Origin: Paraglaciecola psychrophila 170
Lineage (GTDB): Bacteria > Pseudomonadota > Gammaproteobacteria > Enterobacterales > Alteromonadaceae
Direction: 5' to 3'
Length of the DNA: 64,000 nt
NCBI RefSeq assembly: GCF_000347635.1
Contig: NC_020514.1
Span: 5,146,001-5,210,000, forward strand
Part shown: piece after piece, positions 16,678-33,514 of the stretch
Position numbering within the stretch: position 1 is the first letter of the stretch
Layout of the letters: every line of letters begins with the position of its first letter
Position numbers and translations under genes: made by a program
Notes under the pieces: generated by a model
Seen by the model: only the letters and a program-made list of their open reading frames with translations
Told to the model about the DNA's origin: nothing
Databases searched by the model: none

Positions 16678-17049
16678 TTATTGAAAGCCTAAACGATGTA
16701 GTAAAGAGACTAAACTAGTCTGGGTGACAGGTTTAACCAAAAAACCTTCAGCGCCATCTTTGATTGATTGGCGAATATGATCTTCAGAGCTACTTACAGA
16801 ACACATTACCACTTTACTGTTTGGACTTTTAATACTTAGATGTTTGAGTAATTCTAAACCGCTCATCGCAGGTAGATTGATATCCAGTAGAATCAAATCA
16901 AAAACAACATGTAGGACTTTTTCTAATGCCACTTCAGCATTGTCAGCAGTTTCGACAAATTCGTACCCCATACGTTTAAGTATCAAACTGACAAACTTAA
17001 CGTATTGCCTCAAACTTGTCCAATGATAAGAATAATGTGTTTGATTCAT
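16678..17049 (-). CDS. Single-domain response regulator (CheY-like), N-terminus probably frameshifted
   Basis: A 123-residue receiver domain. The phosphoacceptor Asp is in FDLILLDINLPAMSGLELL, the Thr/Ser switch in VVMCSVSSSED, and the conserved Lys in GAEGFLVKPVT. The first 22 residues (HYSYHWTSLRQYVKFV) lack the acidic pair and hydrophobic first strand that the fold needs. In another frame the same DNA reads HIILIIG, a normal first strand. So the start is probably damaged by small indels near 17000-17040, or is an error. No output domain and no adjacent kinase are present, so its pathway is unknown. Confidence 0.75.
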   Translation of the reverse strand: MNQTHYSYHWTSLRQYVKFVSLILKRMGYEFVETADNAEVALEKVLHVVFDLILLDINLPAMSGLELLKHLSIKSPNSKVVMCSVSSSEDHIRQSIKDGAEGFLVKPVTQTSLVSLLHRLGFQ

Positions 17050-17947
17050 ACTTTTAAAGACTCGTGAGCATGTTATATTACAATTTTTATCATTGAAAGA
17101 GAGATGAAAAATTTTCTATCTATATTTTATCAGTCGCCTACAAATATCATAATAGAATCAATTATGGTGGTTCAGGCATATGCGAATCGAACTTGATAAT
17201 TGTATTTTTATTATTGGATTTCAAAACGTTGATTGACGTTTAATTGACGAGAGAGTATTAAACTTCGTTAAAAAAGGTAACTTTAATATACATCCATTTT
17301 ATAGACCAGATGTCACTCGAAGTTAGTTACGCTCTGCCGCTATAGTATTTAGCTAGGCAAATAATACGCTCTCAAATAAGAAACAAACTTTTACTTCTTT
17401 TAGTCTGTGCCTTGTTAGTTAACCTGAGATCTGCTTAAGCGATGACCATAGAGTTCAGCTCTACGTCAGTTAAATTAAGCGGTAAATGGCAGGTTGGGAT
17501 AATGATTACTTGCTGAAACTGCTACAAATATTTTAATACGATTGCCCTAGATTAACGGGTACCGGTCCGGTTGAGTATTTGCGTTTGTTGTAGCTGAAAT
17601 TGTGTGGACACAGGTCGTGATCCCAACAATAGGCAGCTTGGGTTAAACCTGAGTCACGCCCCAGCGGAGCTTCCTGCTTTAAATTTGATGTTGCAGTCGC
17701 TTTGTTTTGCTCATACATTTGTAATGAGGTAATTATGCAGCAGATTGCCCGTCAGAATAAGGACGTGGGTTTATTAAGCGCTTACCTAACAGATGTATAA
17801 GGGACGTCAATATGGCAAATATGAGACATTATGTGTTTTCATCTTATGAAAAATGATGTTTAATTCTACCTATTCAATACTCTATCAAGCGCAAGCTGAG
17901 CACAGTAAAGGGATTTCAGGTGGGTGTGCATTGATACCAACGCTTGA
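17050..17947. other. Gene-poor region with IS982 scrap
   Basis: About 900 bases without a convincing gene. It contains the 55-base IS982 end at 17421-17475. A 61-codon minus-strand frame (17718-17533, with segments SGLTQAAYCWDHDLCPHNFS) and two short plus-strand frames near 17735-17860 are open but unlike any family I know. The mixture suggests remains of past insertions. Confidence 0.5.
17421..17475 (-). mobile_element. Terminal remnant of an IS982-family element
   Basis: The plus strand here begins AACCTGAGATCTGCTTAAGC and continues through GATGACCATAGAGTTCAGCT to CAGTTAAATT. It is nearly identical, as reverse complement, to the right end of the IS982 copy at 31692-31746, covering the inverted repeat and the last codons of the transposase. 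Similarity stops abruptly beyond 17475. No other part of the element is nearby. It marks an old insertion that was later deleted. Confidence 0.85.
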
Positions 17948-19153
17948 TTACTTGATCCATACACCTGATTTGTTATTTTTGTAACCTAATGTCAAATAAG
18001 CAGCATCCACTAGGCTCTGGCCGCGATCGTTGAGTAATAAGCCATTGCCCATTTTGGTCATCGTATAACTAAAAGCCAAACCACACTCGGGGTCAGCAAA
18101 ACCAATAGATCCACCCGCCCCCACATGGCCAAAAGCTTGGTCGCCAAGAATAACGGACTGTCGACTTGCCGCAGAGTGCATCTGACGATTATCTAAAGAC
18201 TTCATAAAACCTGGACCAAACCGTGTTGGAAGTAACAGTGTAAAATCTTGTTGGGTTGCTGTAGAGACCAGACTCATATTTTTAAGGCATTCGGGCGACA
18301 CAAGACTGCCGTCATTCTTAGCTAAAGGTTCATACATGGCAACCTGACCACGGGCATTAGAAATTCCGCCAGCGCCACCGATTTCGGCACGATAGCTTTC
18401 AGGATTATCCGCTCTCCATCCTCCGGTGTTCAAAAATGATAACGCTTGAACAGACGTTGGGTCAGCCATCAACTTAGCGCCGAAATCAAGTACTATGTCG
18501 TCAGGTATAGGTGAATATGGGATCATTGGTGCTATGGGATGAGAAAAGCTGTCTGGAATACCGATCCAGAAATCAGCACCTGTTGGCCCAGCGACTTCGT
18601 CAGCAAAAAAAGTGCCTAGTGATTTTCCTGATACTCTTCGCACCAGTTCACCAACCGTCCAACCAAAGCTCACCATATGGTAACCATTACGTGTACCCGG
18701 CTCCCAAAATGGTTTCTCATTTTCAAGCCGCGAAATCATGTAGTCCCAATCATTGAAGCCACCTAGTTTTATCGGTTCACGAAATGCAGGTACGCCACTT
18801 TCATGGTTGAGCATCATCGCTACTGTAGTGTTGTCTTTCCCGTGTTTACCATACTCAGGCCAGTAATCAGTGACTAGTCCGTGTAAATCAAGCAGCCCCC
18901 TATCGATTAGAATATGCGCACAAAGAGCGGTAGCAGCTTTGGTGCATGAAAAAACAATGGATACTGTATCTCTTTCCCAGAGTTCGCCTGTTTTTTGGTT
19001 AGCCACTCCCCCCCACAAATCCACCATGGTTTCGCCGTTAACACTAAGGCAAACCGACGCACCAGACTCACCTCTATCGGAAAAATTACGTTCAAATTCG
19101 GCTTGCAATTGGACAAATTTCGGGTCGAACTGACCTTTTACTACTGTGGGCAT
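17948..19153 (-). CDS. Serine hydrolase, class C beta-lactamase-like esterase (family VIII)
   Basis: A 401-residue protein of the EstB/class C beta-lactamase fold, cytoplasmic (no signal peptide). The Ser-x-x-Lys motif is SCTK at residues 69-72 (SIVFSCTKAATA), and a candidate catalytic Tyr is in NGYHMVSFGW (about 158). The glycine-rich HVGAGGSIGF near residue 340 replaces the KTG motif. Family VIII enzymes hydrolyse short esters. It is on the same strand as, and 643 bases downstream of, the SDR/Baeyer-Villiger operon, so it may hydrolyse the ester or lactone made there; that link is inference. The long gap suggests its own promoter. Confidence 0.87.
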   Translation of the reverse strand: MPTVVKGQFDPKFVQLQAEFERNFSDRGESGASVCLSVNGETMVDLWGGVANQKTGELWERDTVSIVFSCTKAATALCAHILIDRGLLDLHGLVTDYWPEYGKHGKDNTTVAMMLNHESGVPAFREPIKLGGFNDWDYMISRLENEKPFWEPGTRNGYHMVSFGWTVGELVRRVSGKSLGTFFADEVAGPTGADFWIGIPDSFSHPIAPMIPYSPIPDDIVLDFGAKLMADPTSVQALSFLNTGGWRADNPESYRAEIGGAGGISNARGQVAMYEPLAKNDGSLVSPECLKNMSLVSTATQQDFTLLLPTRFGPGFMKSLDNRQMHSAASRQSVILGDQAFGHVGAGGSIGFADPECGLAFSYTMTKMGNGLLLNDRGQSLVDAAYLTLGYKNNKSGVWIK

Positions 19154-19796
19154 TTGTTGTCTCGATTAATCTAGTTAAAAGAAAAAATGAAGAGCTCATG
19201 AACAACACAAAACCTTGATAGTCAGTCGCTTATAAATAAAACTTAGCGATAAAAAATTTAACCCCATCAAGGATAGAAGTCAGGCATTTCAATTGATGAA
19301 TTTAAAGTGACCATAGCCTTTTTTTTGTGAAGAAATAATTTTATACTTTCTTTACAATTCGGCTAATAATCACCAATGATTTAATGTTACAAGTTGCCAA
19401 ACGCGGATGACATCAACACACCATAACGTTTACCCTAAAAGACATATTCGCGGTTTTTATTTTCGAGTTAAATAAGCCTAGTAGATACTTAGTTAATTAA
19501 TATTCAAAGATTTTAAACTCTTGTTTATTAAGTGACGTAAACGTTTCCATGTATCTAGCTTTACAATTTTCCGTAACACGTTCAACTCTATGAACAATAA
19601 CCATAATAATAGAGTAATCGGTATTCTCGGACGATCCTCAAACTCAACAGAGACAGACATCGCAACGACTGTATCTGCGGTACAATTTTACATTTATACC
19701 TTTGGTTGAACACGCCATAAATAAATTACCTAAATTAGCAGTAAAACGATTATGAGTTAACAGTTCGCTTTGCTGCTAGATACTAGTTTAATGTAA
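19154..19796. other. Intergenic region upstream of the esterase gene
   Basis: These 643 bases hold no frame of note on either strand. The region must carry the esterase promoter (near 19160-19350) and the end of the SDR operon transcript, but I see no clear terminator hairpin or operator. Confidence 0.45.
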
Positions 19797-20579
19797 CTAT
19801 TTAGGTGGCATTCTCAAACCACCATCGATACGAATAGTTTCCCCATTTATATAGGTATTTTCTGCGATATGTAATACTAGATTGGCAAACTCTTCAGGCA
19901 AACCTAAGCGTTTAGGATGCTGTACATGACTTGCCAATGCTGACTGCACATTTTCAGGCATTGCCAGTAACATTGGCGTCCCCATTATGCCCGGAGCGAT
20001 TGTATTTACGCGAATACCGACAGCAGCTAAATCTCTAGCCATAGGTAAAGTTAAGCCAATGATGCCGGCTTTACTCGACGCATAAGCGGTTTGCCCAACT
20101 TGTCCTTCATAACCAGCTACCGAAGCAGTATTGATAATCACTCCTCGGGAATTATCTTGGTCAATTGAGTTTTTTTTAGCCATAATGGCAGCGGCAACTC
20201 TTGCTACATTAAATGAGCCGACGAGATTAATGTTTATCACGTTAGCGAAATCCGCCAATGCCATTGGCTCACTATCTCTATTTAATGTTCGTTTTGCAGG
20301 TGCGACGCCTGCGCAATTGACTAATAAACGTATATTGCTTTGTTTTGTTTTTTGTTGGAGCCTTTCAAATGCGAGTTCCACACTTCCGCTAGATGTAACA
20401 TCAGCAAATTCATAATGACAGTTTGACGCGCTCAGCTGAGACGCGATTTGATCACCATTATCTTTATTTACATCAAATATACACACATGCCAACCTGCGT
20501 TGATTAAAGCGGTAGCGGTGGCATATCCAAGCCCTGAACATCCGCCTGTAACTATTGCTAATGAATGTGGTGAAGCCAT
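19797..20579 (-). CDS. SDR oxidoreductase, HSD10-like 3-hydroxyacyl-CoA/alcohol dehydrogenase
   Basis: A 260-residue classical short-chain dehydrogenase using NAD(H). The cofactor motif is TGGCSGLG (11-18), the structural NCAGV at 88-92, and the catalytic Ser153, Tyr166 and Lys170 (YASSK). The stretch EGQVGQTAYASSKAGIIGLT with RDLAAVGIRVNTIAPGIMGTP and the end NGETIRIDGGLRMPP are characteristic of the HSD17B10 group. Those enzymes oxidise 3-hydroxyacyl-CoA and also cyclic alcohols. It is the last gene of a six-gene minus-strand operon, 44 bases after the Baeyer-Villiger gene. It could act before that enzyme (alcohol to ketone) or after CoA activation. Confidence 0.9.
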   Translation of the reverse strand: MASPHSLAIVTGGCSGLGYATATALINAGWHVCIFDVNKDNGDQIASQLSASNCHYEFADVTSSGSVELAFERLQQKTKQSNIRLLVNCAGVAPAKRTLNRDSEPMALADFANVININLVGSFNVARVAAAIMAKKNSIDQDNSRGVIINTASVAGYEGQVGQTAYASSKAGIIGLTLPMARDLAAVGIRVNTIAPGIMGTPMLLAMPENVQSALASHVQHPKRLGLPEEFANLVLHIAENTYINGETIRIDGGLRMPPK

Positions 20580-20623
20580 ATTGAGTCCTTATTTTATTGC
20601 TTGATTCGGTTTAATTCTCTCAA

Positions 20624-22555
20624 TCAAGTATTAACATCGAACACATAGTTACTTTCGTCTATTTCTCTGGTCATTCGCCAGAAATCATCATTACGCCATG
20701 GTGTAATCGCAACTACACGGCCTCTTTTATTGCGATACCAATTAGTGGTGCCTTTGTGCGTCCAGATCATCTTCGCGTGTGCACTGTCCACTTTTTGATT
20801 GTATTCTTCGAATACATCACGACGAACTTCAATTGTACTACTATGATTTTCAAACATTTTTTCCAATAATAATAATACGTAATTAATTTGTCGCTCTACC
20901 ACGGGTATAATGCTTCCGCCATGACCAAGCCCAGTATTAGGTCCAAGTAAAACAAACATGTTCGGGAAGTCAGGTACCAATGTCCCCATATAGGCTTTAG
21001 GATTATCTGTATCCCAAACTTCCTTCAAGTGCTCCCCTTTAGAACCTAAAACGTCAAGAGAAGATAATATCTCTGTGCTTTTAAATCCTGTTGCCATAAT
21101 TAAAATATCAGCATCAATAGTCTCTCCGTTATCCGCAACAAGAGTAGAGCCTTTAACCTCTTTAAGTCGGTGTGGAACTAGCTTCACATGAGGTTTTGCT
21201 ACCGTGCGATACCATCCATTATCAAGCAGAATTCTTTTTCCGTAAGGCGGATAATCTGGAACAAGATCTTCCAGTAAATCTTGTCTATCACCTAATTCGG
21301 TTTTGATATAATTGAGGAATATATCGCGATGACGATTATTGGTCGCATTAATGGAGTGTTTTTTATCTGTCCAGTCTGGGTCACGCTGCAAAGCACCGTG
21401 TAGACGATCATTAAATGTCCAAGCCAGACGCTGACGATACCAAGCCTGGTAAAGTGGCACTTCTTTCAATAGAAAGCGTATGTCTTCAGGTACTTCTTTC
21501 TGAAATTGCGGAAAGGGAGCTGCCCACTGTTTAGAGCGGGCATAAATCGTCAATTTTTTCGCTTTATCAACGATGGCCGGAGCTACCTGCATGGCACTGG
21601 CGCCGTTACCAACAATGGCTACCTTTTTATCGGTTAAATCCAAGTCGCTAGGCCATTGTGCTGTGTGACACACTCTACCTGTAAAGGTATCTAGTCCAGG
21701 GATATCAGGAACAAAAGGTACACTTAACAACCCAACTGCACTTAATATCACATTACCAATTAAGGTTTGTTGCTGACCGTCTGGCCCAACAATTGTTACG
21801 TGCCACTTCTTTGTAGCTGTATCAAATTTGGCCTGTAGCACAGTCGTTTCAAAGTGTGTATCTTTAGATAATTGATAGTCCATAGCGACTGCTTCAATAT
21901 AGGCGACTATTTCACCTCGTAATGCAAAATAGCGAGTCCAATCGTTAGGCGCAAATGAAAAAGAATATAAGTGGTTAGGTGTATCAACACCTGCTGCCGG
22001 ATACTGGTTTTCTTTCCATGTTCCGCCAAAGCCAGAATTTTTCTCGATGATAGTGAAATCAATACCATGCTCTTGAAGCTTTATTCCAGCGCATATACCA
22101 GATACACCACCGCCAATAATTATCGCATTAAAATCATCAGGTACCTGCCCTGAAAACGTATTGCCATTTTTGCGAGGGATCGATGGTAATAATTCTGCCT
22201 CAATGATCTCACCATAGTTCTCAGGAACGGTTTCCCCAGTTGATATGCTAATCATTCGAGTGAGCAAGTCTGCCGAGGGTTCAGAAATAGAAACAGGCTT
22301 GCCTTTTTTCCATTCAATCACCGCATCTGCAGCAGCTGTGCGAACTTTTCGCTGAATATCTTCAGGTAGTCCGCCGCTGTCGTTATCATCCAAACCACGC
22401 GCGCGGCTTGGCATATATGGTGCGGCTAACCAACTTTGGTCTCCGGTCAATTGAACAAGTACCATTAACAACGTAGGTATATTAGCTATAGAAATTGCTT
22501 TGCGGAATCGCTTCTCAAGTTCAAGATCTAACTGAGTATTTATAGCGTCTGACAT
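20624..22555 (-). CDS. Type I Baeyer-Villiger monooxygenase (HAPMO-like)
   Basis: A 643-residue FAD/NADPH flavoprotein that inserts oxygen next to a ketone, giving an ester or lactone. The FAD motif is GGGVSG (148-153), the Baeyer-Villiger fingerprint FTGRVCHTAQWP lies at 291-302 (FxGxxxHxxxWP), and the second dinucleotide motif VGNGAS is at 315-320. The about 140-residue N-terminal extension (ANIPTLLMVLVQLTGDQSWL) is like that of 4-hydroxyacetophenone monooxygenase, not the shorter cyclohexanone enzyme. It sits between the TonB receptor and the SDR with 44-55 base gaps, so it is cotranscribed. The substrate could be an alicyclic, aromatic or terpenoid ketone; sequence alone does not tell. 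Confidence 0.93.
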   Translation of the reverse strand: MSDAINTQLDLELEKRFRKAISIANIPTLLMVLVQLTGDQSWLAAPYMPSRARGLDDNDSGGLPEDIQRKVRTAAADAVIEWKKGKPVSISEPSADLLTRMISISTGETVPENYGEIIEAELLPSIPRKNGNTFSGQVPDDFNAIIIGGGVSGICAGIKLQEHGIDFTIIEKNSGFGGTWKENQYPAAGVDTPNHLYSFSFAPNDWTRYFALRGEIVAYIEAVAMDYQLSKDTHFETTVLQAKFDTATKKWHVTIVGPDGQQQTLIGNVILSAVGLLSVPFVPDIPGLDTFTGRVCHTAQWPSDLDLTDKKVAIVGNGASAMQVAPAIVDKAKKLTIYARSKQWAAPFPQFQKEVPEDIRFLLKEVPLYQAWYRQRLAWTFNDRLHGALQRDPDWTDKKHSINATNNRHRDIFLNYIKTELGDRQDLLEDLVPDYPPYGKRILLDNGWYRTVAKPHVKLVPHRLKEVKGSTLVADNGETIDADILIMATGFKSTEILSSLDVLGSKGEHLKEVWDTDNPKAYMGTLVPDFPNMFVLLGPNTGLGHGGSIIPVVERQINYVLLLLEKMFENHSSTIEVRRDVFEEYNQKVDSAHAKMIWTHKGTTNWYRNKRGRVVAITPWRNDDFWRMTREIDESNYVFDVNT

Positions 22556-22610
22556 TACGGATCCTTATAAAAAATAGGCTGCAGCGGCCAAGACACACTG
22601 CAGTACAAAA

Positions 22611-24851
22611 TTAGAAGTTCATATCTAAAGTGACACCAAATGTTCTCGGCGGTCGAAGCGAGCCAACACGCGAAAAGCTATATAGTGGTGCTGCAGTGAT
22701 ATTATTCGCTACGACATATTCATCCGTTAGATTCCGGGCCCACAAAGAAAAAGACCACCTATCGCTCGCAGGAGTAAATTTCATACTTGCATTAATGTTA
22801 ATGAATCCCTCTTGGTAAGCGTCACTATTATTAAACTCAGTAAAATAAACGTCATCTTGATAATTGGCACCAATAGAAAAATCCATCTCGCCTGAATTTC
22901 CTAAAGTTAGATAATAATCAGCAAAAATAGCCAGTGTATATTCAGGTGCATTAGGCATTTGATTACCAGACAAATCACTTATGGTAGGGTCTGTAGGACA
23001 CGTTACAAACTGTCTTTTTGATGGAACCCCTGCAGCATAGTACCCATTACAGAAGTCAGTAAATTCTGTATTAAGGTATGTTGCAAACGCACGAACTGAA
23101 AGGTTTTCGGTAACAGGAAATGAAGCGTCTAACTCAATACCCCAAATTTCTGCAGATGCCGCGTTTATAGTTTCCACAAGACTCTCTGCATTTACAAATC
23201 CAACTTGTAAATCGGTATAATCATAGAAGAAAGCCGCACCATTTAAGATTAAACCAGTTTCTTTATCGTGTAATTTGAAGCCAGTTTCATAACTCCAAAT
23301 AAATTCAGGTTCAATTATAGGATTAACACTTCCAACATTTATCACGCCACTTTTAAAGCCTTTCGTTATCCCTGCATATAACATCAAGTCATCACTGAAA
23401 TCATATTCCATCATGAATTTTGGGGTAAATGCATTCCAACTTTCTGCTTTGTCAGTTTCGACAAAAACACCAAATGGGGAGAAAGTAAAATCACCTTTTC
23501 CTTCACGTTTTTCGTGATTATAGCGCCCGCCAGCAGTTAATCTAAATTCTGGTGATACTTCATACGTTGTCTCAAAAAATAAACCTACGGCATCGGTAGT
23601 TATAGAACCCTTTTGACGAAAAATTCCGTCAGGAATAACTCCTGGGGGTTCGCCAAAAATAATAGTGCCGATATTATTTAAGAGTACTAGCACCTCACCA
23701 TCAAGCTCTTCATAAACATATGACGCGCCGCCAAGAAATGACCATTCATCAACGCTGTAGCTCAGGGTGAGGTCTTGTGTAAAAGCTTGGCTATTTTCGG
23801 TGTAGTTATTTTGTCCAAATGCATCGACGTCGGTTACATCTAGATCATTCCGGTTAAAACGTTCGAATTGACGATAAGATGTTGTTGATTCAACCTTCAA
23901 TTCACCGGGACGCCAGGTGATTACACTTTGCAATCCCACCCCTCTTCGATCATTTATTGCATCTTGATCTGAATTGATATCACGGGTTTCAGGGTTATCT
24001 GTCAAATCATAAATAGTCTGCCCGCCAAAGACTGGTCCAGGTAAGAGTTCCTTTTCAATAATAGATGGTCCGAGATCATGAAAAGCGTAGTTGAAATCAT
24101 CTTCTCGAAAAAAATCACCAACCAATAAAACTTCTAAATCATCACTCACGTCATATAGAAGTGACCCACGTATAGCATAGGCTTTACGGTCATCAACAGG
24201 ATTACCTGTTGCTCGATTGGTACCATATCCATCTCGACTCTCGTATTCACCCGCAACACGATACATCAACTTGTCATTAATCGGCCCTCCAATAGCACCT
24301 TCTAAGTTTGCTGTGTTGTAATTACCGTAGGTAATACGACTATATCCTTCCAAATCACTAGAAGGTCTAGTTGTCACCATATTCACAACTCCACCAGTTG
24401 CTCCACGTCCGTACAAAGTTCCTTGCGGACCTCTAAGTACTTCGACCTGTGATAAATCATAGAAACCAGCAAGCTGCGCTGCAGGACGGGTAATGACAGA
24501 GCCATTTTGTAGAAAAGCGACTGCGCCATCTGCACCAAGATCTATACTATTAAAGCCAATTCCTCGCATGAACGCACGGTTTACACCAAATTGTTCACCC
24601 ACAGAAAAATTAGGAATTTCTATAGCCAGATCAGAAGAAGTTTGAATACCGCCTGGACCAATATCTTTGCCAGAGACCACGTTCAATGATCCTGCTATAT
24701 CTTCAAGTGCAGCACTTTTTCTTGTTGCTTGAACAATAATAACTTCAACGTCGTCTACGGACTTATCTGCGTTTTCTTGTGCCCAGGATTGATATGGGAG
24801 TACAGCGATACCTATTGCCACAGCAGCAGCAATTTTATTTTGCTTTATCAT
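22611..24851 (-). CDS. TonB-dependent outer-membrane receptor of the catabolic operon
   Basis: A 746-residue receptor with a signal peptide ending near SWAQE, a TonB box-like VEVIIVQATRK, a plug domain (GGIQTSSDLAIEIPNFSVG, QVEVLRGPQGTLYGRGATGG) and a 22-strand barrel ending in the aromatic TLDMNF. The plug and barrel resemble the Caulobacter/Sphingomonas-type receptors for organic compounds rather than siderophore receptors, and no iron gene is near. Its location inside the operon, 52 bases after the CoA ligase gene and 55 before the monooxygenase, argues that it imports the pathway substrate. That substrate assignment is inference. Confidence 0.93.
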   Translation of the reverse strand: MIKQNKIAAAVAIGIAVLPYQSWAQENADKSVDDVEVIIVQATRKSAALEDIAGSLNVVSGKDIGPGGIQTSSDLAIEIPNFSVGEQFGVNRAFMRGIGFNSIDLGADGAVAFLQNGSVITRPAAQLAGFYDLSQVEVLRGPQGTLYGRGATGGVVNMVTTRPSSDLEGYSRITYGNYNTANLEGAIGGPINDKLMYRVAGEYESRDGYGTNRATGNPVDDRKAYAIRGSLLYDVSDDLEVLLVGDFFREDDFNYAFHDLGPSIIEKELLPGPVFGGQTIYDLTDNPETRDINSDQDAINDRRGVGLQSVITWRPGELKVESTTSYRQFERFNRNDLDVTDVDAFGQNNYTENSQAFTQDLTLSYSVDEWSFLGGASYVYEELDGEVLVLLNNIGTIIFGEPPGVIPDGIFRQKGSITTDAVGLFFETTYEVSPEFRLTAGGRYNHEKREGKGDFTFSPFGVFVETDKAESWNAFTPKFMMEYDFSDDLMLYAGITKGFKSGVINVGSVNPIIEPEFIWSYETGFKLHDKETGLILNGAAFFYDYTDLQVGFVNAESLVETINAASAEIWGIELDASFPVTENLSVRAFATYLNTEFTDFCNGYYAAGVPSKRQFVTCPTDPTISDLSGNQMPNAPEYTLAIFADYYLTLGNSGEMDFSIGANYQDDVYFTEFNNSDAYQEGFININASMKFTPASDRWSFSLWARNLTDEYVVANNITAAPLYSFSRVGSLRPPRTFGVTLDMNF

Positions 24852-24903
24852 CGTTTAAATCCTTCAATATTTATCTGAATACTTAGTTTTATATTTATAT
24901 TCT

Positions 24904-26547
24904 TCAGTTTTGCCCTAAAACTTCTCGGCTAAATCGTAAACCGGATTTGTCTCGATCCCAGGTATCAGATGTTAAGCCTTCTATCCTAAGTTGAGATTTC
25001 TGCACTTTTTCAGTAGGTGTTTTTGGCAGCGCATCTACGATCCTGATATAACGCGGCACCATGTAATATGGCATTCGATTAACCAAAAATTCACACAATG
25101 CTTTGAGGTCTATTTCTGCGCCCTCTACAATGGAAATTATCGCCATAACATCGTCTTCTGTTGCTTCGCTAGGTACCCCTATCGCTGCTGCTTCTTTTAC
25201 TGCTGGATGACTACAAATTTCAGCTTCCACTTCAAAAGAAGAAATATTTTCTCCTCGTCGACGGATAGCATCCTTGATACGATCGACAAAATAGAAATAT
25301 CCGCTTTCGTTCTGACGAAAAGCATCACCGGTATGAAACCATCCATTGCGCCATGCCTCAGCTGTAGCTTCACTATTTTTGTAATAGCCACTATTCATAC
25401 CCCAGGGTCGGTCGGTGCGGACTATCATTTCGCCGACTTGTCCTACAGGAACTTCACAGTCATTGCTATCAACCAATCTCACTTCAACTCCAGGTCGCAC
25501 TTTTCCACACGTGCCTCTAACCGACGGGTTAGGTTCCGATACAATTGGTGATGAGATTTCAGTCATATTAAAAATCGTATAAATATCAATCCCAAAACGC
25601 TCATTAAAGGCAAGCGCATCGTCAGATAATGGAACCATAAACGCTTTTTTCACTCCGTGTTTTTTGTCATGTTCACTTTTGGGTTGCTTCATTAAAAATG
25701 TTGCCATTACACCTAAGAGGAAAACTACGGTAGCTTTCGATTTTTTTGCCGCAGCCCAAAATTTATCGGTTGAAAACCCACTTAATAATGCAAACGATGC
25801 TCCACGCACTAACATTACAAATGGAGGCGCCATTCCGCCGATGTGAAAAAGAGGAGCTGCGACCAAATATCTATCTTCGTGGGTTACCATTGGCCAAGTT
25901 TCAGGACCTGCGTTACTAAACATATGTAGGTATGATGACAACACGCCTTTAGACGGACCTGTTGTTCCTGAAGTGTAAATAATAGATTGCGGATCCCAAG
26001 GGTCAATTGGTCTAATCAACGGGGTTAGTTCATTAGTTGAGTGCTTTAAATCATCAAAAAAGTGACTTTTTAAACCAGTATCCACATCACTTCCCCCACC
26101 ACTAAGTATTTGAACCTTTAGGTTAGCTAAATCAATCTCAGTCAATCTAGGAACTAAATCTTTGTGTACAACGATAATGCTAGCATCGGAGTTATCGATA
26201 ACATGGCGTAACATGTTGCCTCGATAAGCAGTATTAAACGGGACGAAAATCGCACCGATATAATTTAAAGCATAAAATGCGAGTAATGCATCAGGTCCAT
26301 TTGGCAACCAAACAGCAACGGTTTCGCCCTGCTTCACTCCTTGCTTTTGGAACCCTGCTGCGACTCGAATGACTCGTTCTTTCAATTCAGCGAAAGTCCA
26401 AGCATCCCCATCTTCAAATTGGACATATACTTTATCTGGGGTTTCTGCTGCCCAGCGGTCAATTAAATATCTAACCACACATTTATCGCGATCCGGTATT
26501 CTGTAATCATAAAAGTCACTTTGTTTCATTAGATTCTTAGCTCCCAT
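24904..26547 (-). CDS. AMP-dependent acyl-CoA synthetase/ligase (CaiC-like)
   Basis: A 547-residue adenylate-forming enzyme that activates a carboxylic acid with ATP and CoA. The P-loop-like motif IIYTSGTTGPSKGV is at 189-202, the A5 region IYTIFNMTEISSP follows, then the hinge GWFHTGDAF and DRIKDAIRRRGENISSFEVE. The catalytic Lys lies in PKTPTEKVQK near the C-terminus. It is closest in style to crotonobetaine/carnitine-CoA ligases, but this subfamily is broad. Two in-frame ATGs (26547 and 26529) are possible. It sits 23 bases after the TetR gene. Its likely role is CoA activation of an acid released in the same pathway. Confidence 0.9.
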   Translation of the reverse strand: MGAKNLMKQSDFYDYRIPDRDKCVVRYLIDRWAAETPDKVYVQFEDGDAWTFAELKERVIRVAAGFQKQGVKQGETVAVWLPNGPDALLAFYALNYIGAIFVPFNTAYRGNMLRHVIDNSDASIIVVHKDLVPRLTEIDLANLKVQILSGGGSDVDTGLKSHFFDDLKHSTNELTPLIRPIDPWDPQSIIYTSGTTGPSKGVLSSYLHMFSNAGPETWPMVTHEDRYLVAAPLFHIGGMAPPFVMLVRGASFALLSGFSTDKFWAAAKKSKATVVFLLGVMATFLMKQPKSEHDKKHGVKKAFMVPLSDDALAFNERFGIDIYTIFNMTEISSPIVSEPNPSVRGTCGKVRPGVEVRLVDSNDCEVPVGQVGEMIVRTDRPWGMNSGYYKNSEATAEAWRNGWFHTGDAFRQNESGYFYFVDRIKDAIRRRGENISSFEVEAEICSHPAVKEAAAIGVPSEATEDDVMAIISIVEGAEIDLKALCEFLVNRMPYYMVPRYIRIVDALPKTPTEKVQKSQLRIEGLTSDTWDRDKSGLRFSREVLGQN

Positions 26548-26570
26548 TTACTTCGGCTTCTAATTTGAAC

Positions 26571-27278
26571 TTACTGTTTGGTAATTTTATTTTTCTCTAA
26601 TTCGGACATTTTTTCTGCACCAATTAGTTTTAATCCGGCGCTCACAAAACTCAAGAGAACATCATGCTGTGATAACGTCCCATTTAACGAGAACCAAACA
26701 GGCAACCAAGTGATTAAGCCACCAATCCAAATGACATCCATTTCATGGGCACTCAATTCAAACTCGCCAGCACTTGCCCCACAATTAATCAACTTAGCGA
26801 TATTGTGATCAAATTCATGGCGTTTCAGCAGAATACGCTGGCCATCTTGTGGATTTAGTTTTTTGATTTCTCTCAGATACGTAACGATGCAGGCTTGCCG
26901 TTTTATAACGACATTCCCTACCTGCCAGAGAGTTTGAATAAAAATATCTCGGTAAGAACCATCAGTTGATAATGCCTTTTGCAAAACCTCTAATGATTCA
27001 TTGACTCCAGTTTCACAAACGGCTGCCAATATCGCTTCTTTGTTCTTAAAGTAGCTATATATAAAAGGTTTGGTTACTTGCAGTCTTTTTGCAATTGCGT
27101 CAATTGTTGTACCCGCATAACCTTGATCAAAAAAAAGTATCGTTGCCTCCTCCAGAATTCGATTTCGTTTTAATGAAAGCAACTCACCCTTCAGGTGACC
27201 CAGAGTATGTTTTGTATCATCACTTTGATTTTTAGAATTTTCTGAATTGTTATCAGTTGTTGAAGTCATCAAAATCAC
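26571..27278 (-). CDS. TetR/AcrR family transcriptional regulator of the catabolic operon
   Basis: A 235-residue regulator. The helix-turn-helix is typical: RILEEATILFFDQGYAGTTI, DAIAKRLQVTKPFIYSYFKN, KEAILAAVCE. The C-terminal ligand domain (about 95-225) is divergent, with tryptophans in IWIGGLITWLPVWFSLNG. Its ATG overlaps the stop of the dehydrogenase gene by four bases (ATGA), so it is translationally coupled inside the operon. It most likely represses this operon and the divergent ligase gene by binding the inverted repeat at 28601-28622, with a pathway acyl-CoA or ketone as ligand; this is inference. Confidence 0.9.
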   Translation of the reverse strand: MILMTSTTDNNSENSKNQSDDTKHTLGHLKGELLSLKRNRILEEATILFFDQGYAGTTIDAIAKRLQVTKPFIYSYFKNKEAILAAVCETGVNESLEVLQKALSTDGSYRDIFIQTLWQVGNVVIKRQACIVTYLREIKKLNPQDGQRILLKRHEFDHNIAKLINCGASAGEFELSAHEMDVIWIGGLITWLPVWFSLNGTLSQHDVLLSFVSAGLKLIGAEKMSELEKNKITKQ

Positions 27279-28459
27279 ATCGCCATTTTAAGGATTTCTT
27301 TAATACTGTTTGCATCCACTATAGGTCTCGGATTTGTGCGTCCCCATATATCCTCTAATGTCAAATCAGCGACCATATCAAACTTATCTTCACTCACTCC
27401 GACCTCAGTCAATGTGCGAGGCATACCAAGCATCCTAATCAATTCATCAAGCGCCTCAGAGGCTGTTTTTTCACCCGCTCCCAATGCTTCACAGATACGA
27501 ACCTGACGAGATTCATCATGTGCTCTATTCCATTCCAATACATAAGGGGACATTACACAGGACGTATAACCATGAGGAACATTGCAAGCACCACCTAAGA
27601 TATGACCAATAGCGTGACTAGCTCCCATAGGTACGCCGCCTATAATTGGTACCATTGACTGCCAGGCACCCATTTGACATTTCAGGCGCGCATCGAGATC
27701 CTGAGGATCCGTTTTCATTTGTTTCAAACCTTCTGACAACATACGTAAAGCATTGGCAGCCAAACCATCTGCAAAATCATTAGATAAGTGTGAAGCTAGC
27801 GTTTCGACACAATGGTCAATTGACCTTACTCCTGTAGAGATCCAGAGCCATTCAGGTGTGTGCACAGTTATTGCCGGATCAAGAATGATCGCTTTAGGTG
27901 CCATTTCACGGTGGGAATATGCTTGCTTATGGCCGCTTACTTCGTCTGTTGCTCCTGATAGTGGGTTGAACTCCCCACCAGATAGCGTTGTTGGTACACA
28001 AATAATCGCTATATCAGGACCAGCATCAACCATATTATCCAGAGGGTTAACCATTTCGCCAGTTTCAGTCATTGTTATCCGCAATGCTTCCATTTGACTG
28101 GAATCAGTTACATTGTGCTTAACAAGTAGTGCGGCAATTTTACCCGCGTCGGTTACTGATCCGCCGCCAACGGTTACGACTAGATCTGCATTTACTGAGC
28201 GAATTGCGTCTGTAACCTTAATCACATCAGCTCTTGGTGCATGAGGCTGTATCCCGTCAATAGTTGCAGCATGATGGCGCCCAAGCGCTGCTTCTATATT
28301 AGAAATTTCACTGGTGTTTTCGTTGAGAGATTTACTAGCCAATATTAAAACTCTCTCAAATTTATATTGTTTAACTAATTCTTTTATACATTCACTAGCG
28401 GGACGACCAAACATGACTTGTTCCGTCGCAGCTAAAGTTACTTGATACTTTCCAGACAT
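27275..28459 (-). CDS. Iron-containing alcohol dehydrogenase / maleylacetate reductase-like
   Basis: A 394-residue group III (Fe-dependent) dehydrogenase. The NAD-binding GGGSVTDAGK is present, and metal ligands are seen in GVRSIDHCVE (Asp/His region), GASHAIGHILGG and NVPHGYTSCV. It could oxidise an alcohol, or reduce a keto acid as maleylacetate reductase does. I start at ATG 28459 (MSGKYQVTLAA), which has AGGGAAAA upstream; an ATG at 28528 would add a hydrophobic leader of 23 residues with no purpose. It is the first gene of the operon, and its stop overlaps the TetR start. Confidence 0.88.
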   Translation of the reverse strand: MSGKYQVTLAATEQVMFGRPASECIKELVKQYKFERVLILASKSLNENTSEISNIEAALGRHHAATIDGIQPHAPRADVIKVTDAIRSVNADLVVTVGGGSVTDAGKIAALLVKHNVTDSSQMEALRITMTETGEMVNPLDNMVDAGPDIAIICVPTTLSGGEFNPLSGATDEVSGHKQAYSHREMAPKAIILDPAITVHTPEWLWISTGVRSIDHCVETLASHLSNDFADGLAANALRMLSEGLKQMKTDPQDLDARLKCQMGAWQSMVPIIGGVPMGASHAIGHILGGACNVPHGYTSCVMSPYVLEWNRAHDESRQVRICEALGAGEKTASEALDELIRMLGMPRTLTEVGVSEDKFDMVADLTLEDIWGRTNPRPIVDANSIKEILKMAM

Positions 28460-28947
28460 AATGATTTTCCCTATTAATAAACCAAAAAAATTAACTATAA
28501 AGGCTCTGATTGATAACAATATTTTCACATACTACTATTACCATTTACATACCGCTACTTTTTTTTATACTAAATAAATAATTTAATACCTAAGTAATTA
28601 AAATATACTCGTCAGTATATTTATCAACAATATAGTGAAAATCAAAAATCATTAGAATGTTTGATGACAAGAAATAGAGTAAATTTGGCGATATATGTCC
28701 GAAATATACTAAGGCTGAGACTTGTTACTCCGATTTATAAAAGTTTTATCATTTGTAGTGAGAACATTTTTGAAGATTAGGAAATAAAGTTGGTTGTTAA
28801 CTATTGTTAACATAACGTTAAAAAATGGGCGGTAAGTCAGCTCAAGGCTGTATCTTTGCTTCAACAAAATTTATGCAGCGTAAACACAAACGAAAGCTAC
28901 TCAAGATTATTGGTCACACAGTAGAAAACTTATTAAGGAACTTAGCC
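28460..28947. other. Divergent promoter region of the catabolic island
   Basis: An AT-rich spacer of about 490 bases between the Fe-dehydrogenase operon (minus) and the acyl-CoA synthetase (plus). It carries the inverted repeat at 28601-28622 and an isolated copy of its left arm (AAATATACT) at 28702-28710. GTTAAC occurs twice, at 28796-28801 and 28806-28811. A plus-strand frame from ATG 28825 is continuous with the synthetase but its first 41 residues look non-coding. Confidence 0.6.
28601..28622. promoter_or_regulatory. Perfect inverted repeat, candidate TetR operator
   Basis: Nine-base arms AAATATACT (28601-28609) and AGTATATTT (28614-28622) are exact reverse complements around CGTC. Length and symmetry suit a TetR dimer. 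It lies 141 bases upstream of the Fe-dehydrogenase ATG and 326 bases upstream of the synthetase TTG, so one site could control both directions. The arm is repeated at 28702-28710. Binding by the operon's TetR protein is inferred. Confidence 0.6.
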
Positions 28948-30591
28948 TTGCTCGATAATAATAACGCCTACAAAAAGCATCTAGATAAGAAATCCGCAAA
29001 TTTCACGGCACTTTCACCATTAACCTTTATTGACCGGACTGCCAAAGTATACCCAAACCATACCGCAGTTGTTCATGGCAATATCCGCAGAAATTGGGCT
29101 GAAACCTATCAACGCTGCCAACAAATGGCTAGCGCCTTAAGTAAATATGGTATTGGTGTAGGCGATACAGTATCGCTCATTGCGCCAAATATCCCGGAGC
29201 ATTTTGAATTGCATTTTGCAGTCCCTATGTGTGGCGCAGTGCTTAACTCGATCAACACTCGACTCGATTCTGAGAGTTTCGCCTTTATCCTTGAACATGC
29301 CGAAGCCAAAGTATTGTTTGTTGATAAAGAATTTAGCGGCATGGTTACCAAAGCGCTTGATATGTTGCCTAATGACTTTTTGGTCATCGATATAGATGAC
29401 GTTAATTGGCAGGATGGGGAGTTGATTGGCTCTACAGATTACGAAGCTTTTCTAGAAACTGGTGACCAGCATTATAACTGGCAACCCCCGAGTGATGAGT
29501 GGGATGCAATTTCTCTAAATTATACCTCAGGCACAACCGGTGATCCTAAAGGCGTGGTCTATCATCATCGAGGGGCCTACCTTAATGCTGTGAGTAACGC
29601 AATGTCTTGGGGTATGCAACAGCACCCTGTTTATCTTTGGACGCTCCCCATGTTCCATTGTAATGGGTGGTGCTTTCCATGGACTGTGGCATTGATGGCT
29701 GGAGTGAATGTTTGCCTACGCCATGTGCAAGCTGATGCGATATTCGATTTAATCAAGTCAGAAGAAGTTAATTATTTCTGTGGTGCACCAATCGTATTGA
29801 ATATGCTAAATCTAGCCGATAGTTCATTAAAGTCGGGAATCGAACATAAGGTTAAAGTGATGACTGCTGGCGCTCCACCACCGGCCCAGGTTATAGAAGG
29901 AATGGAAGCACTCGGTTTTGAAGTGACACATGTATATGGTTTGACCGAAACCTATGGTCCTTCAGTCGTGTGTGCGTGGCATGACGATTGGAGTAAACAA
30001 TCCCCGAAAAATCAAGCTCGATTAAAATCTCGCCAAGGGGTTCGAGCACCCATGCTTGACGGCCTGATGGTTGCCGATCCGGATACCCTCATACCCATTC
30101 CACAAGATGGAAAAACTATAGGTGAAATCTTTATGCAGGGAAACCTTGTGATGAAGGGTTATCTAAAAAATCCTAAGACTACTGAAAAAGCCTTCAAGGG
30201 AGGTTGGTTTCAATCAGGTGATTTGGCAGTTTGGCACCCAGATGGATATATCGAAATTAAGGATAGGTCCAAAGATATAATCATCTCTGGAGGGGAGAAT
30301 ATTTCAAGTATAGAAATTGAAGATGTGCTTTACCGTCATCCATTAGTCCAAGAAGCAGCAGTAGTTGCGATGAAGCATGAAAAGTGGGGCGAAACACCTT
30401 GTGCCTTCGTTACCTTGAAATTAGCAGAAACCTGTACTGAGCAGGATTTAATTGACTTCTGTCGCGCTCATATGGCGCATTTTAAGGCCCCTACACGAGT
30501 TGTTTTTGGCGAATTACCAAAAACCTCAACAGGTAAAACTAGAAAGTTTGAACTGCGTGAAATAGCAGATAATAACACAGCCTCAGAATAG
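28948..30591 (+). CDS. Fatty-acyl-CoA synthetase family protein (AMP-binding)
   Basis: A 547-residue acyl-CoA synthetase. The motif NYTSGTTGDPKGVVYHHRGA binds ATP, then VYGLTETYGPSVVCAWHDDW (A5), GWFQSGDLAVWHPDGYIEIKD (hinge) and the catalytic Lys in ELPKTSTGKTRKFEL. This family (medium/long-chain type) usually begins a few residues before ALSPLTFIDRTAKVYPNHTA. I therefore start at TTG 28948, which has AAGGA eight bases upstream; the ATG at 28825 would add 41 atypical residues. It is divergent from the six-gene operon. A hairpin without T run at 30611-30643 may end the message. The role is probably activation of an acid product or side chain. Confidence 0.88.
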   Translation: MLDNNNAYKKHLDKKSANFTALSPLTFIDRTAKVYPNHTAVVHGNIRRNWAETYQRCQQMASALSKYGIGVGDTVSLIAPNIPEHFELHFAVPMCGAVLNSINTRLDSESFAFILEHAEAKVLFVDKEFSGMVTKALDMLPNDFLVIDIDDVNWQDGELIGSTDYEAFLETGDQHYNWQPPSDEWDAISLNYTSGTTGDPKGVVYHHRGAYLNAVSNAMSWGMQQHPVYLWTLPMFHCNGWCFPWTVALMAGVNVCLRHVQADAIFDLIKSEEVNYFCGAPIVLNMLNLADSSLKSGIEHKVKVMTAGAPPPAQVIEGMEALGFEVTHVYGLTETYGPSVVCAWHDDWSKQSPKNQARLKSRQGVRAPMLDGLMVADPDTLIPIPQDGKTIGEIFMQGNLVMKGYLKNPKTTEKAFKGGWFQSGDLAVWHPDGYIEIKDRSKDIIISGGENISSIEIEDVLYRHPLVQEAAVVAMKHEKWGETPCAFVTLKLAETCTEQDLIDFCRAHMAHFKAPTRVVFGELPKTSTGKTRKFELREIADNNTASE

Positions 30592-30747
30592 CAACATATA
30601 TCAATGATTAGTTCGCTGACTGAGAAGTTAATAGTCAGTGAACGTCTTCTAGTTTCAAATAATTCCCTAAAATCGCCTGATGTTGGGCAATAACATTTAT
30701 ATATTTCGATAAGTGCGGAAAGAGACAGTTGTGAATTTTTGCTATTT

Positions 30748-31746
30748 AACCTGAATCCTGTTGAAGAAACTAAACTAAATGCCTGTTCCAAGATCCGATC
30801 TTTCGACAAAAAGAGATGAATCTAAAAAGGAACAGGCATGAGTAAATTAGTTGAGTTGTTTTGTGATGTCGATTATTTTTGCAAAGTATTTATTCTTCAA
30901 TGGCGTAAACAACTGCTCGAAGACGCAACGCGAAAACGTCAAAAAGAAGGGCAAAGAGAAGGGCAAATGACCACATATGAAATTATGACGATTGTCGTCA
31001 GTTTTCATATGTCACATTACCGTGATTTCAAAAACTACTCTCTTGGGTATGTATCTCTTGTGTACAAAAATGCGTTTCCAAATTTATTGAATTACACACG
31101 ATTCTACCGGTCATGCCTAGAGTTACCGTGCCCATGTGTGCCTACTTCACATCACTTAAAGGAAAGCCATCAGGACATGAATTCATTGACTCTACAAGCA
31201 TCAAGGTGTGTCATAACATCGAATACCTAGACATAAAACCTTCGACGGTATCGCTCAACGAGGTAAAGGTACTATGGGTTGGTTTTATGGCTTCAAGCTC
31301 CACTTAGTCGTCAATCATCACGGTGAAATTGTTGCTGCGAAAGTCACAACCGGCAATGTGCATGACACTCAACCCATACGTGAATTAGCAGAAGGTTTGA
31401 CTGATAAATTGTATGGAGACAAAGGCTATTTGAGTAAAGATTTGGAAGCGGATTTATTAGACAAAGGTGTAAGTCTCATCACAACCGTTCGCAAAAATAT
31501 GAAAGCAAAAGCTATATCGTTGTGGGATAGGGCCATGCTTTCAAGGCGCTATATAATTGAAACAATAAACGACCAACTTAAGAATATTTCTTATATCGAA
31601 CACTCAAGGCATCGGAGTATGAACAGCTTTATGCTGAATTTACTCGCGGGATTGGTCGCTTATTGTTTAAAAGAAAATAAGCCAAGCTTCAATTTAACTG
31701 ACGTAGAGCTGAACTCTATGGTCATCGCTTAAGCAGAACTCAGGTT
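30748..31746 (+). mobile_element. IS982-family insertion sequence
   Basis: About 1.0 kb bounded by imperfect inverted repeats: AACCTGAATCCTG at 30748-30760 and the complement of AACCTGAGTTCTG at 31734-31746. It contains one broken transposase. I cannot see a convincing target duplication, and the exact outer base is uncertain by a few bases. To the right it abuts the remnant of a chemotaxis receptor gene. A 55-base piece of the same element is at 17421-17475. Confidence 0.87.
30838..31732 (+). pseudogene. IS982-family transposase, two frameshifts
   Basis: Three frames together spell an IS982 transposase of about 297 residues. Frame one runs MSKLVELFCDVDYFCKVF to about 31110, including MTTYEIMTIVVSFHMSHYRD. 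Frame two covers VPMCAYFTSLKGKPSGHEFI and DSTSIKVCHNI, including the first DDE Asp. Frame three holds MGWFYGFKLHLVVNHHGEIV, LYGDKGYLSKDLEADLL (second Asp) and RYIIETINDQLKNISYIEHS (Glu region). Breaks near 31105-31115 and 31215-31225 each look like one or two missing bases. As written, the protein could not be made, so this copy is probably immobile unless the breaks are errors. Confidence 0.88.
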
Positions 31747-31747
31747 A

Positions 31748-32062
31748 GCTAAACTACAAAAAGAAGCGGATAGCGTGATACAAGCAATAACTCAGGATAA
31801 AGATCAAGCTGTAGCCAGTTTATCTCAAATCAAAAAATCACAGGAATTTGTTGATTCATTAAACCACGTCATTCTTAAAATCAATAATTTGCACGGCGTA
31901 ATCGAAAAAGAAATAGATGACTAGTTACAACAAACCGATACCACCAATCAAGCACTCTCTAATATTGAACTGCAAAGCACGCAATCGCAGCAGGAAGCCG
32001 AAATGATGCAGGAAACATCACACAAATTATCTGATATCTGTATATCTCACACTACATTTTAA
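31748..32062 (+). pseudogene. C-terminal remnant of a methyl-accepting chemotaxis protein
   Basis: Directly after the IS982 right repeat, 105 codons read as the end of an MCP signalling coiled coil: AKLQKEADSVIQAITQDKDQ, then AVASLSQIKKSQEFVDSLNH, and after an in-frame TAG at 31922-31924, LQQTDTTNQALSNIELQSTQ and ETSHKLSDI. The TAG stands where a Gln is expected. The N-terminal sensor and membrane parts are not found to the left of the IS, so the gene was truncated by a rearrangement as well as mutated. A terminator follows at 32101. Confidence 0.8.

Positions 32063-32137: not shown

Positions 32138-33514
<1,377 letters not shown>

What the first reader, a model, noticed from the sequence alone, without database searches (positions are those of the whole stretch)
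17948..30591. A Baeyer-Villiger-centred catabolic island with import, oxidation, cleavage and CoA-activation steps
One block holds, on the minus strand, an esterase, HSD10-like SDR, type I Baeyer-Villiger monooxygenase (FTGRVCHTAQWP at residues 291-302), TonB receptor, CoA ligase, TetR and Fe-type alcohol dehydrogenase, and, divergently, a second acyl-CoA synthetase. This order of functions (alcohol to ketone to ester to acid to CoA thioester) parallels the cyclohexanol (chn) and cyclopentanol (cpn) pathways, but those lack a TonB receptor and CoA ligases and have an aldehyde dehydrogenase. The N-terminal extension of the monooxygenase is HAPMO-like, so a bulky or aromatic ketone is possible. 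I know of no described system with this exact set. The substrate is unknown.
Basis: partly seen in the sequence, partly recalled or inferred. Interest (0 to 1): 0.8.

Follow-up and report, generated by a model that had tools for sequence, protein, structure and literature searches.

The report
Mobile ketone-degradation gene island
A block of genes in a sea-ice bacterium looks like a switch-controlled kit for importing a water-repelling ketone or alcohol and breaking it down to fuel; the same kit, which I could not find described, recurs in other marine and freshwater bacteria.

Summary
The genome length equals that of Glaciecola (Paraglaciecola) psychrophila 170T. The block looks like a mobile island: it lies between genes that are neighbours in two congeners, is bracketed by IS982 ends, and its monooxygenase and CoA ligase have no ortholog in 21 congeners.

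It is a conserved unit. The Baeyer-Villiger enzymes that travel with this CoA ligase and Fe-ADH-family enzyme form one clade (CoA ligase nearby in 42 of 50 relatives inside, 0 of 33 outside). The co-encoded TetR has a candidate operator, AATATACT-N4-AGTATATT, found once in 5.41 Mb, before the first gene; related sites precede unit genes in alphaproteobacteria.

Most likely chemistry (inferred): secondary alcohol, ketone, lactone/ester, hydroxy acid, keto acid, CoA thioester, beta-oxidation, in the order of carveol/limonene breakdown rather than chn/cpn. The substrate is unknown; a cyclic terpenoid-like ketone is my first guess, an aryl ketone less likely. The divergent acyl-CoA synthetase is peripheral. 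My searches of an open-access library showed no description of this unit. New variant of a known kind.

The parts
17415..17476 (.). IS982 end remnant, left border of the island
   Evidence: 62 bp, 97% identical to the reverse complement of 31691-31752
17948..19153 (-). family VIII (PF00144) esterase, proposed ester/lactone opening
   Evidence: SxxK in 19 of 19 aligned; orthologs beside BVMO in 18 loci
19797..20579 (-). SDR, proposed alcohol to ketone
   Evidence: orthologs in 2 loci, decayed remnant in Glaciecola
20624..22555 (-). type I Baeyer-Villiger monooxygenase with N-terminal extension
22611..24851 (-). TonB-dependent receptor, proposed import
   Evidence: orthologs in 25 of 50 clade loci
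24904..26547 (-). acid-CoA ligase, proposed CoA activation
   Evidence: orthologs in 42 of 50 clade loci
26571..27278 (-). TetR-family regulator
   Evidence: orthologs in 28 of 50 clade loci
27275..28459 (-). Fe-ADH-family dehydrogenase with Arg at the usual Asp metal ligand; start moved from 28528
   Evidence: orthologs in 38 of 50 clade loci
28602..28621 (.). candidate TetR operator AATATACT-N4-AGTATATT
28948..30591 (+). divergent acyl-CoA synthetase, peripheral; start moved from 28825
30747..31752 (+). IS982 copy with transposase in two frames, right border (left end judged by eye)

Best explanation
A horizontally acquired, TetR-controlled catabolic island. A hydrophobic ketone or secondary alcohol enters through the TonB receptor. 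The SDR oxidises the alcohol to a ketone, the BVMO inserts oxygen to give a lactone or ester, and the family VIII esterase opens it to a hydroxy acid (a metallo-beta-lactamase-fold hydrolase probably takes this step in most sphingomonads). The Fe-ADH-family enzyme oxidises the hydroxyl; if it is secondary, a keto acid forms and no aldehyde dehydrogenase is needed. The CoA ligase makes the thioester for beta-oxidation. TetR sits on a palindrome before the first gene and releases on a pathway ligand. Shown computationally: gene content, conservation, co-inheritance, island borders, operator conservation. Inferred: every reaction, its order, the ligand and the substrate; first guess a cyclic terpenoid-like ketone.
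For: Unit: a BVMO clade of 51 rows (SH-aLRT 95) holds all 43 rows with this CoA ligase or Fe-ADH-family gene nearby; CoA ligase in 42 of 50 loci inside against 0 of 33 outside; distances of partner proteins correlate, 0 of 500 permutations as high for each of 7 pairs. CoA-ligase-anchored search: 8 of 10 stretches with the ligase at 60% or more carry BVMO at 50% or more. L130 keeps the order FeADH, CoA ligase, TonB receptor, BVMO, SDR, esterase, TetR with BVMO, SDR and esterase from distant branches. Regulation. Hydrolase step: esterase ortholog in 17, MBL in 21, both in 0, of 46 loci. No aldehyde dehydrogenase found by one query in the 64-kb window nor in 44 of 46 clade loci. CoA to beta-oxidation: L124 has FeADH, CoA ligase and TetR near thiolase, FadB-like and acyl-CoA dehydrogenase genes. 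Step order as in carveol breakdown (PMC4097962, passages). Island.
Against: No substrate or activity evidence. SDR orthologs are rare (2 of 50 loci plus the window) and the gene is decayed in Glaciecola. The Fe-ADH-family enzyme lacks the usual Asp ligand and resembles maleylacetate reductases, so its role is unsure. Loci were collected by BVMO pattern (best 80 of 193), which biases counts. The esterase/MBL and TonB/TRAP splits follow lineage in part, and L044 has a PF00144 protein and an MBL protein, both below my identity cut-offs. The 18 Rhodobacteraceae-type loci lack the orthologous TetR. Eleven of 33 TetR-bearing loci show no operator at 3 mismatches. The esterase lies 643 bp beyond the SDR with no operator copy before it.
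Confidence: 0.55

Rival explanations
1. Aryl-ketone pathway of the HAPMO type: an acetophenone-like compound is turned into an aryl ester, cleaved to a phenol or hydroquinone, and the maleylacetate-reductase-like Fe-ADH-family enzyme acts after ring cleavage.
For: N-terminal extension as reported for HAPMO (PMC10028610 and PMC5407406, passages); some relatives are named 4-hydroxyacetophenone monooxygenase by a source; nearest solved chains of the Fe-ADH-family enzyme include maleylacetate reductases. Two single loci have aromatic genes 10-12 kb from the BVMO: catechol ortho-cleavage genes in L099 and a protein annotated as 2,4'-dihydroxyacetophenone dioxygenase family in L098.
Against: Relatives of those two ring-cleavage proteins were found only in the loci they came from, among 50 stretches searched; a CoA ligase is not needed; the extension is general to this BVMO group.
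Confidence: 0.15
2. The CoA ligase acts first and the BVMO oxidises a CoA-bound keto acid, as in the second ring of camphor.
For: Camphor precedent (PMC4097962, passages); TRAP transporter genes nearby in 11 of 18 Rhodobacteraceae-type loci suggest an acidic substrate there; OTEMO chains are among the structural matches.
Against: Other type I BVMOs rank higher; TonB and P450 context in sphingomonads suggests a neutral hydrophobic start compound.
Confidence: 0.15
3. Subterminal alkane or methyl-ketone oxidation: alcohol to methyl ketone to acetate ester to shorter alcohol and acetate.
For: BVMO plus a beta-lactamase-fold esterase recalls acetone/methyl acetate systems (AcmB is a weak NCBIfam hit of the esterase, far below its cut-off; pathway recalled); L130 has a short, 31% identical BVMO instead; PMC4320567 (passages) speaks of many Pyr_redox_3-type putative alkane hydroxylases in this very strain, and the window's BVMO, which matches that Pfam family, may be among them.
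Against: A primary alcohol product would call for an aldehyde dehydrogenase, found near only 2 of 46 clade BVMOs; lactonase-like MBL hydrolases fit lactones better.
Confidence: 0.1
4. Loose assembly of mobile catabolic genes without one pathway.
For: IS982 borders; synthetase, CoA-transferase and SDR come and go between lineages.
Against: Clade partition 42 of 50 against 0 of 33, correlated divergence, shared operator.
Confidence: 0.05

Closest known systems
Carveol/dihydrocarvone (limonene) breakdown in Rhodococcus erythropolis DCL14
   Same: Same order of functions: alcohol dehydrogenase, ketone monooxygenase, lactone hydrolase, oxidation of the hydroxy acid, CoA activation, beta-oxidation (PMC4097962, passages). 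Many sphingomonad loci add a P450 and an MDR-type reductase, which would parallel limonene hydroxylation and carvone reduction.
   Different: TonB receptor, Fe-ADH-family enzyme and TetR operon here; orthology to the DCL14 enzymes was not tested; substrate unknown.
Cyclohexanol (chn) and cyclopentanol (cpn) pathways
   Same: Alcohol, ketone, lactone, hydroxy acid logic (recalled).
   Different: They use an aldehyde dehydrogenase and no CoA ligase, and ChnR is AraC-type (recalled); here a CoA ligase, TetR and TonB receptor.
HAPMO (hapE) pathway of Pseudomonas fluorescens ACB
   Same: BVMO with N-terminal extension (PMC10028610, passages); maleylacetate-reductase-like enzyme (hap gene set recalled).
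   Different: No ring-cleavage gene recurs among the neighbours that I annotated; CoA ligase and TonB receptor present.
Camphor pathway (camF, camG/OTEMO)
   Same: CoA ligase and BVMO in one pathway (PMC4097962, passages).
   Different: There the BVMO acts on the CoA ester; gene content otherwise different (recalled).

Membership tests
Type I Baeyer-Villiger monooxygenase | FxGxxxHxxxW(P/D) fingerprint | tested here: met
   residues 291-302; F, G, H, W invariant in 84 of 84
Type I Baeyer-Villiger monooxygenase | two Rossmann GxGxx(G/A) motifs | tested here: met
   GGGVSG at 148-153 and GNGASA at 316-321
Type I Baeyer-Villiger monooxygenase | second fingerprint (A/G)GxWxxxx(F/Y)P(G/M)xxxD | tested here: inconclusive
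   GGTWKENQYPAAGVD: one position is A instead of G/M; several relatives in the same alignment have G there; motif as given in PMC5407406 (passages)
Type I Baeyer-Villiger monooxygenase | catalytic arginine | tested here: met
   R441 aligns with R329 of Thermocrispum CHMO, invariant in 84 of 84; that this Arg is catalytic is recalled
HAPMO group | N-terminal extension | tested here: met
   80 of 80 loci match from residue 1-27 on; helical in the model, residues 11-122
HAPMO group | hydroquinone ring-cleavage gene neighbours | tested here: inconclusive
   none in 17948-30591 nor among the recurring families annotated; aromatic-cleavage genes 10-12 kb away in two single loci; not filed as a hap pathway
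HAPMO group | close identity to HapE and activity on 4-hydroxyacetophenone | not tested
   HapE sequence was not at hand
chn/cpn cycloalkanol pathway | aldehyde dehydrogenase for the oxo acid | tested here: not met
   none in the window and in 44 of 46 clade loci by tblastn with one ALDH at E 1e-12
Carveol/limonene-type pathway | SDR, BVMO, hydrolase, dehydrogenase and CoA ligase encoded together | tested here: met
   all five classes in 17948-28459; by class, not by orthology; no membership claimed
Carveol/limonene-type pathway | activity on p-menthane ketones | not testable with these tools
   needs enzyme assays
Classical metal-dependent Fe-ADH | Asp plus three His metal ligands | tested here: not met
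   Asp position is Arg in 39 of 39, three His kept (ligand positions recalled); called Fe-ADH-family only
Family VIII esterase | SxxK motif and class-C beta-lactamase fold family | tested here: met
   PF00144; SxxK and the following Tyr in 19 of 19

The most novel reading that the evidence does not exclude
A widespread, so far undescribed proteobacterial pathway, defined by one BVMO clade, a dedicated CoA ligase, a variant Fe-ADH-family enzyme with Arg in the metal site and a TetR with a conserved palindromic operator, degrades a common aquatic cyclic terpenoid or apocarotenoid ketone, and has moved as an IS982-bordered island from alphaproteobacteria into sea-ice Alteromonadaceae.
Probability: 0.35. 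Interest if true: 0.7.

Novelty: new variant of a known kind. Interest (0 to 1): 0.55.

Why it matters
The natural substrates of most Baeyer-Villiger enzymes are unknown, as a survey of the family says (PMC4498894, abstract start and passages). This unit gives a defined gene set, regulator and candidate operator in culturable bacteria, so the inducer and substrate can be sought with a reporter screen. It would add a step to how marine and freshwater bacteria recycle hydrophobic ketones, and supply a BVMO from a sea-ice organism.

Tried and rejected
Considered and set aside: HAPMO/hydroquinone route (no recurring ring-cleavage genes); chn/cpn (no aldehyde dehydrogenase, CoA ligase present); chance neighbourhood. 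Compositional evidence for transfer was weak: GC of the block (0.38-0.45) is close to its surroundings (0.36-0.44); transfer rests on absence in congeners, the occupied site and the tree.

Literature searches for the gene set: (open-access library only). Searches returned nothing; others returned 1, 2, 54 and 36 papers, of which at most 25 were listed and I saw titles and abstract starts. None of those listed looks like a description of this unit by title and abstract start, but a mention inside an unopened paper is not excluded. I saw passages only of PMC4320567, PMC12997858, PMC10028610, PMC5407406, PMC4498894, PMC4097962 and PMC9836352. The last concerns anthraquinone; it has a luciferase-like BVMO and a second, type I BVMO beside a monoterpene lactone hydrolase, which I did not compare.

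Promoter and terminator scan was uninformative: 32 promoter-like sites against 39.1 expected, 14 terminator-like against 10.7. The BVMO model has moderate confidence (mean pLDDT 71.5, 17 sequences), so its matches only confirm the fold. No tRNA and no Rfam match in the window.

In one search I also left L041 (3.5-kb contig) and L043 out of the comparison group; L041 has a site with 3 mismatches, so with both the group would be 3 of 62 loci, not 2 of 60. Four contigs under 4 kb were left out of the 46 loci. The gene caller is crude and lists some antisense ORFs; counts rest on the homology scans.
Full report
What is there. On the minus strand the Fe-ADH-family gene, TetR, CoA ligase, TonB receptor, BVMO and SDR follow each other with gaps of -4, 23, 52, 55 and 44 bp; the esterase follows after 643 bp with no ORF longer than 55 aa between. 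The BVMO has the fingerprint at 291-302, two Rossmann motifs and Arg441, aligned with R329 of Thermocrispum CHMO. Its second fingerprint has A in place of G/M. The genome is 5,413,691 bp long, the length given for Glaciecola psychrophila 170T in the abstract of PMC3642286 (search listing); the identification is inferred from that.

A mobile island. At E <= 1e-40 three of 21 congeners match the BVMO, at only 31-32% identity; the CoA ligase has no match at E <= 1e-150 in 21 congeners. In the order, 2 of 394 genomes match the BVMO at E <= 1e-90, the window's own and G303, whose contig length equals that of Glaciecola pallidula L014. In two of four congeners examined, the glyoxalase gene (window 16172-16591) lies directly beside purA (window 32138-33478), about 126 and 69 bp apart by match ends; in the other two the glyoxalase was not found in the fetched stretch. 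In the window they are 15.5 kb apart. The block from esterase to synthetase is bracketed by a 62-bp IS982 end (17415-17476) and, in opposite orientation, an IS982 copy that ends near 31752. In the tree the BVMO groups with two Glaciecola and a Kordiimonas inside an otherwise largely alphaproteobacterial clade, which suggests transfer from that side; the outgroup branch is very long, so the root is unsure.

A conserved unit. One scan of the species-genome collection gave 193 BVMO relatives, of which the best 80 were kept. In Glaciecola sp. 33A and G. pallidula the order is synthetase, CoA-transferase, then divergently FeADH, TetR, CoA ligase, TonB receptor, BVMO, with traces of an SDR behind (the trace in 33A is weak, E 0.006). 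Kordiimonas is alike, with a synthetase remnant. Rhodobacteraceae-type loci have esterase (16 of 18), BVMO, CoA ligase (14 of 18) and FeADH (10 of 18), with TRAP genes in 11 of 18. The 29 sphingomonad-type loci have FeADH 25, TetR 25, CoA ligase 25, TonB receptor 22, CoA-transferase 21, MBL-fold hydrolase 20, P450 19 and an MDR-type reductase 14 (families, one annotated example). In the BVMO tree (IQ-TREE quick search, SH-aLRT only) all 43 rows with the CoA ligase or FeADH fall into one clade of 51 rows, support 95. Without the window, CoA ligase is in 42 of 50 clade loci and FeADH in 38 of 50, against 0 of 33 for each outside; four clade contigs are under 4 kb. Pairwise distances of partner proteins correlate (Spearman 0.57-0.84; 0 of 500 permutations as high for each of 7 pairs); shared ancestry of the hosts contributes to this.

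An independent anchor. Searching with the CoA ligase instead of the BVMO gave matches at E <= 1e-150 in 6 of 398 genomes of the phylum and 2 of 369 of the class (both counts include the window's own genome) and 10 of 246 of the order of G721 (including G721). All 16 other places were fetched with flanks. Ten have the ligase at 60% or more: 8 of these have BVMO at 50% or more, L130 has a 31% BVMO, L124 none. The 6 with ligases at 43-54% have no BVMO in the stretch, two of them cut by contig ends. L130 is telling: FeADH, CoA ligase, TonB receptor, BVMO, SDR, esterase, TetR in almost the order of the window (TetR last), with BVMO, SDR and esterase from distant branches (31, 22 and 24% identity). 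L124, from a genome of the window's class, has FeADH, CoA ligase and TetR near thiolase, FadB-like and acyl-CoA dehydrogenase genes.

Regulation. Between FeADH and the divergent gene lies AATATACT-N4-AGTATATT (28602-28621). Its 18-bp core is unique in the 5.41-Mb genome. With up to one mismatch the full site occurs once in G000, twice in Glaciecola (G303) and once in the Kordiimonas genome (G1146), each time at the unit or, for the second Glaciecola site, at the adjoining MBL gene; it is absent from two congeners without the unit (G005, G014) and from G1203, which carries the unit and has a site with 2 mismatches. The backwards control pattern is absent from the three positive genomes and occurs at one place in G014. 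In 33 loci with the orthologous TetR, 22 have a site with up to 3 mismatches (32 sites); in 60 loci without it, 2 (see dropped rows). The motif was read from the window and Glaciecola; without these three, 19 of 30 loci have 27 sites. Thirty of the 32 sites lie within -120 to +260 bp of a unit gene start, a generous range because ORF starts are approximate (FeADH 16, CoA-transferase 15, TonB receptor 5, BVMO 4, MBL 3, others 3; a site can count for two genes); the other two, in L130, are about 150 and 85 bp before the TonB receptor and FeADH ORFs. Of 100 palindromes of the same composition, none reached the 12 loci hit by the real one at up to 2 mismatches; the best reached 9, the next 2, the median 0. 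Eleven TetR-bearing loci show no site at 3 mismatches. The helix-turn-helix region is strongly conserved in 29 TetR sequences.

Mechanism. The recurring functions give a route from ketone to CoA thioester. Two hydrolases of unrelated fold replace each other: esterase ortholog in 17, MBL in 21, both in none, neither in 8, of 46 loci, as expected if both open the BVMO product. The split follows lineage in part; L044 has members of both families below my cut-offs, and the Glaciecola loci have an alpha/beta hydrolase besides the MBL. An aldehyde dehydrogenase was found near 2 of 46 clade BVMOs (L030, L038) and not in the window (one query), which fits a secondary hydroxy acid oxidised to a keto acid. 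The review PMC4097962 (passages) describes limonene/carveol breakdown in this order: lactone formation, hydrolysis, oxidation, CoA activation, beta-oxidation. The Fe-ADH-family enzyme is the least certain step: its nearest solved chains include maleylacetate reductases, and Arg replaces the Asp metal ligand in 39 of 39 members, as in chain 9ph0 named MAR1.

Against this reading. Nothing here measures activity. SDR orthologs are rare, the window has lost the CoA-transferase kept in Glaciecola, and Rhodobacteraceae-type loci use other regulators and importers. The N-terminal extension, source names, catechol genes near the unit in L099 and a dihydroxyacetophenone-dioxygenase-family gene in L098 keep an aryl-ketone route possible; the TRAP context keeps an acid substrate or a CoA-first order possible.

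Verdict. A real, conserved and probably mobile ketone-catabolic unit, of which I saw no description in the listings of my open-access searches. It works like the carveol/limonene route by gene classes, but membership in that or in the HAPMO or chn/cpn systems is not claimed.

Noticed in passing
window 27275-28459 and 38 related loci: A Fe-ADH-family branch with Arg in place of the metal-ligand Asp but all three His kept, in 39 of 39 sequences.
   Followed up: partly
L130 2732-12457: Nearly the same order of functions with a short, 31% identical BVMO and distant SDR and esterase: apparent swapping of three enzymes within one pathway frame.
   Followed up: partly
L122 about 9314: A three-mismatch operator-like site close to the start of a 45% CoA ligase in a locus without BVMO.
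   Followed up: no
L044 (Pseudomonas sp. ERMR1:02): A Pseudomonas version with FadL/TodX channel, DUF1302 and DUF1329 proteins, PF00144 esterase and MBL hydrolase around BVMO, TetR and FeADH.
   Followed up: no
window 16678-17049: Lone receiver-domain protein between the glyoxalase gene and the IS982 remnant; it had no match between glyoxalase and purA in two congeners.
   Followed up: no
window 38712-39401 and 39871-41991: Integrase-core fragment and a second TonB receptor to the right of purA.
   Followed up: no
G000:C1:4829984-4831363: A second, 31% identical BVMO-like gene elsewhere in the same genome.
   Followed up: no
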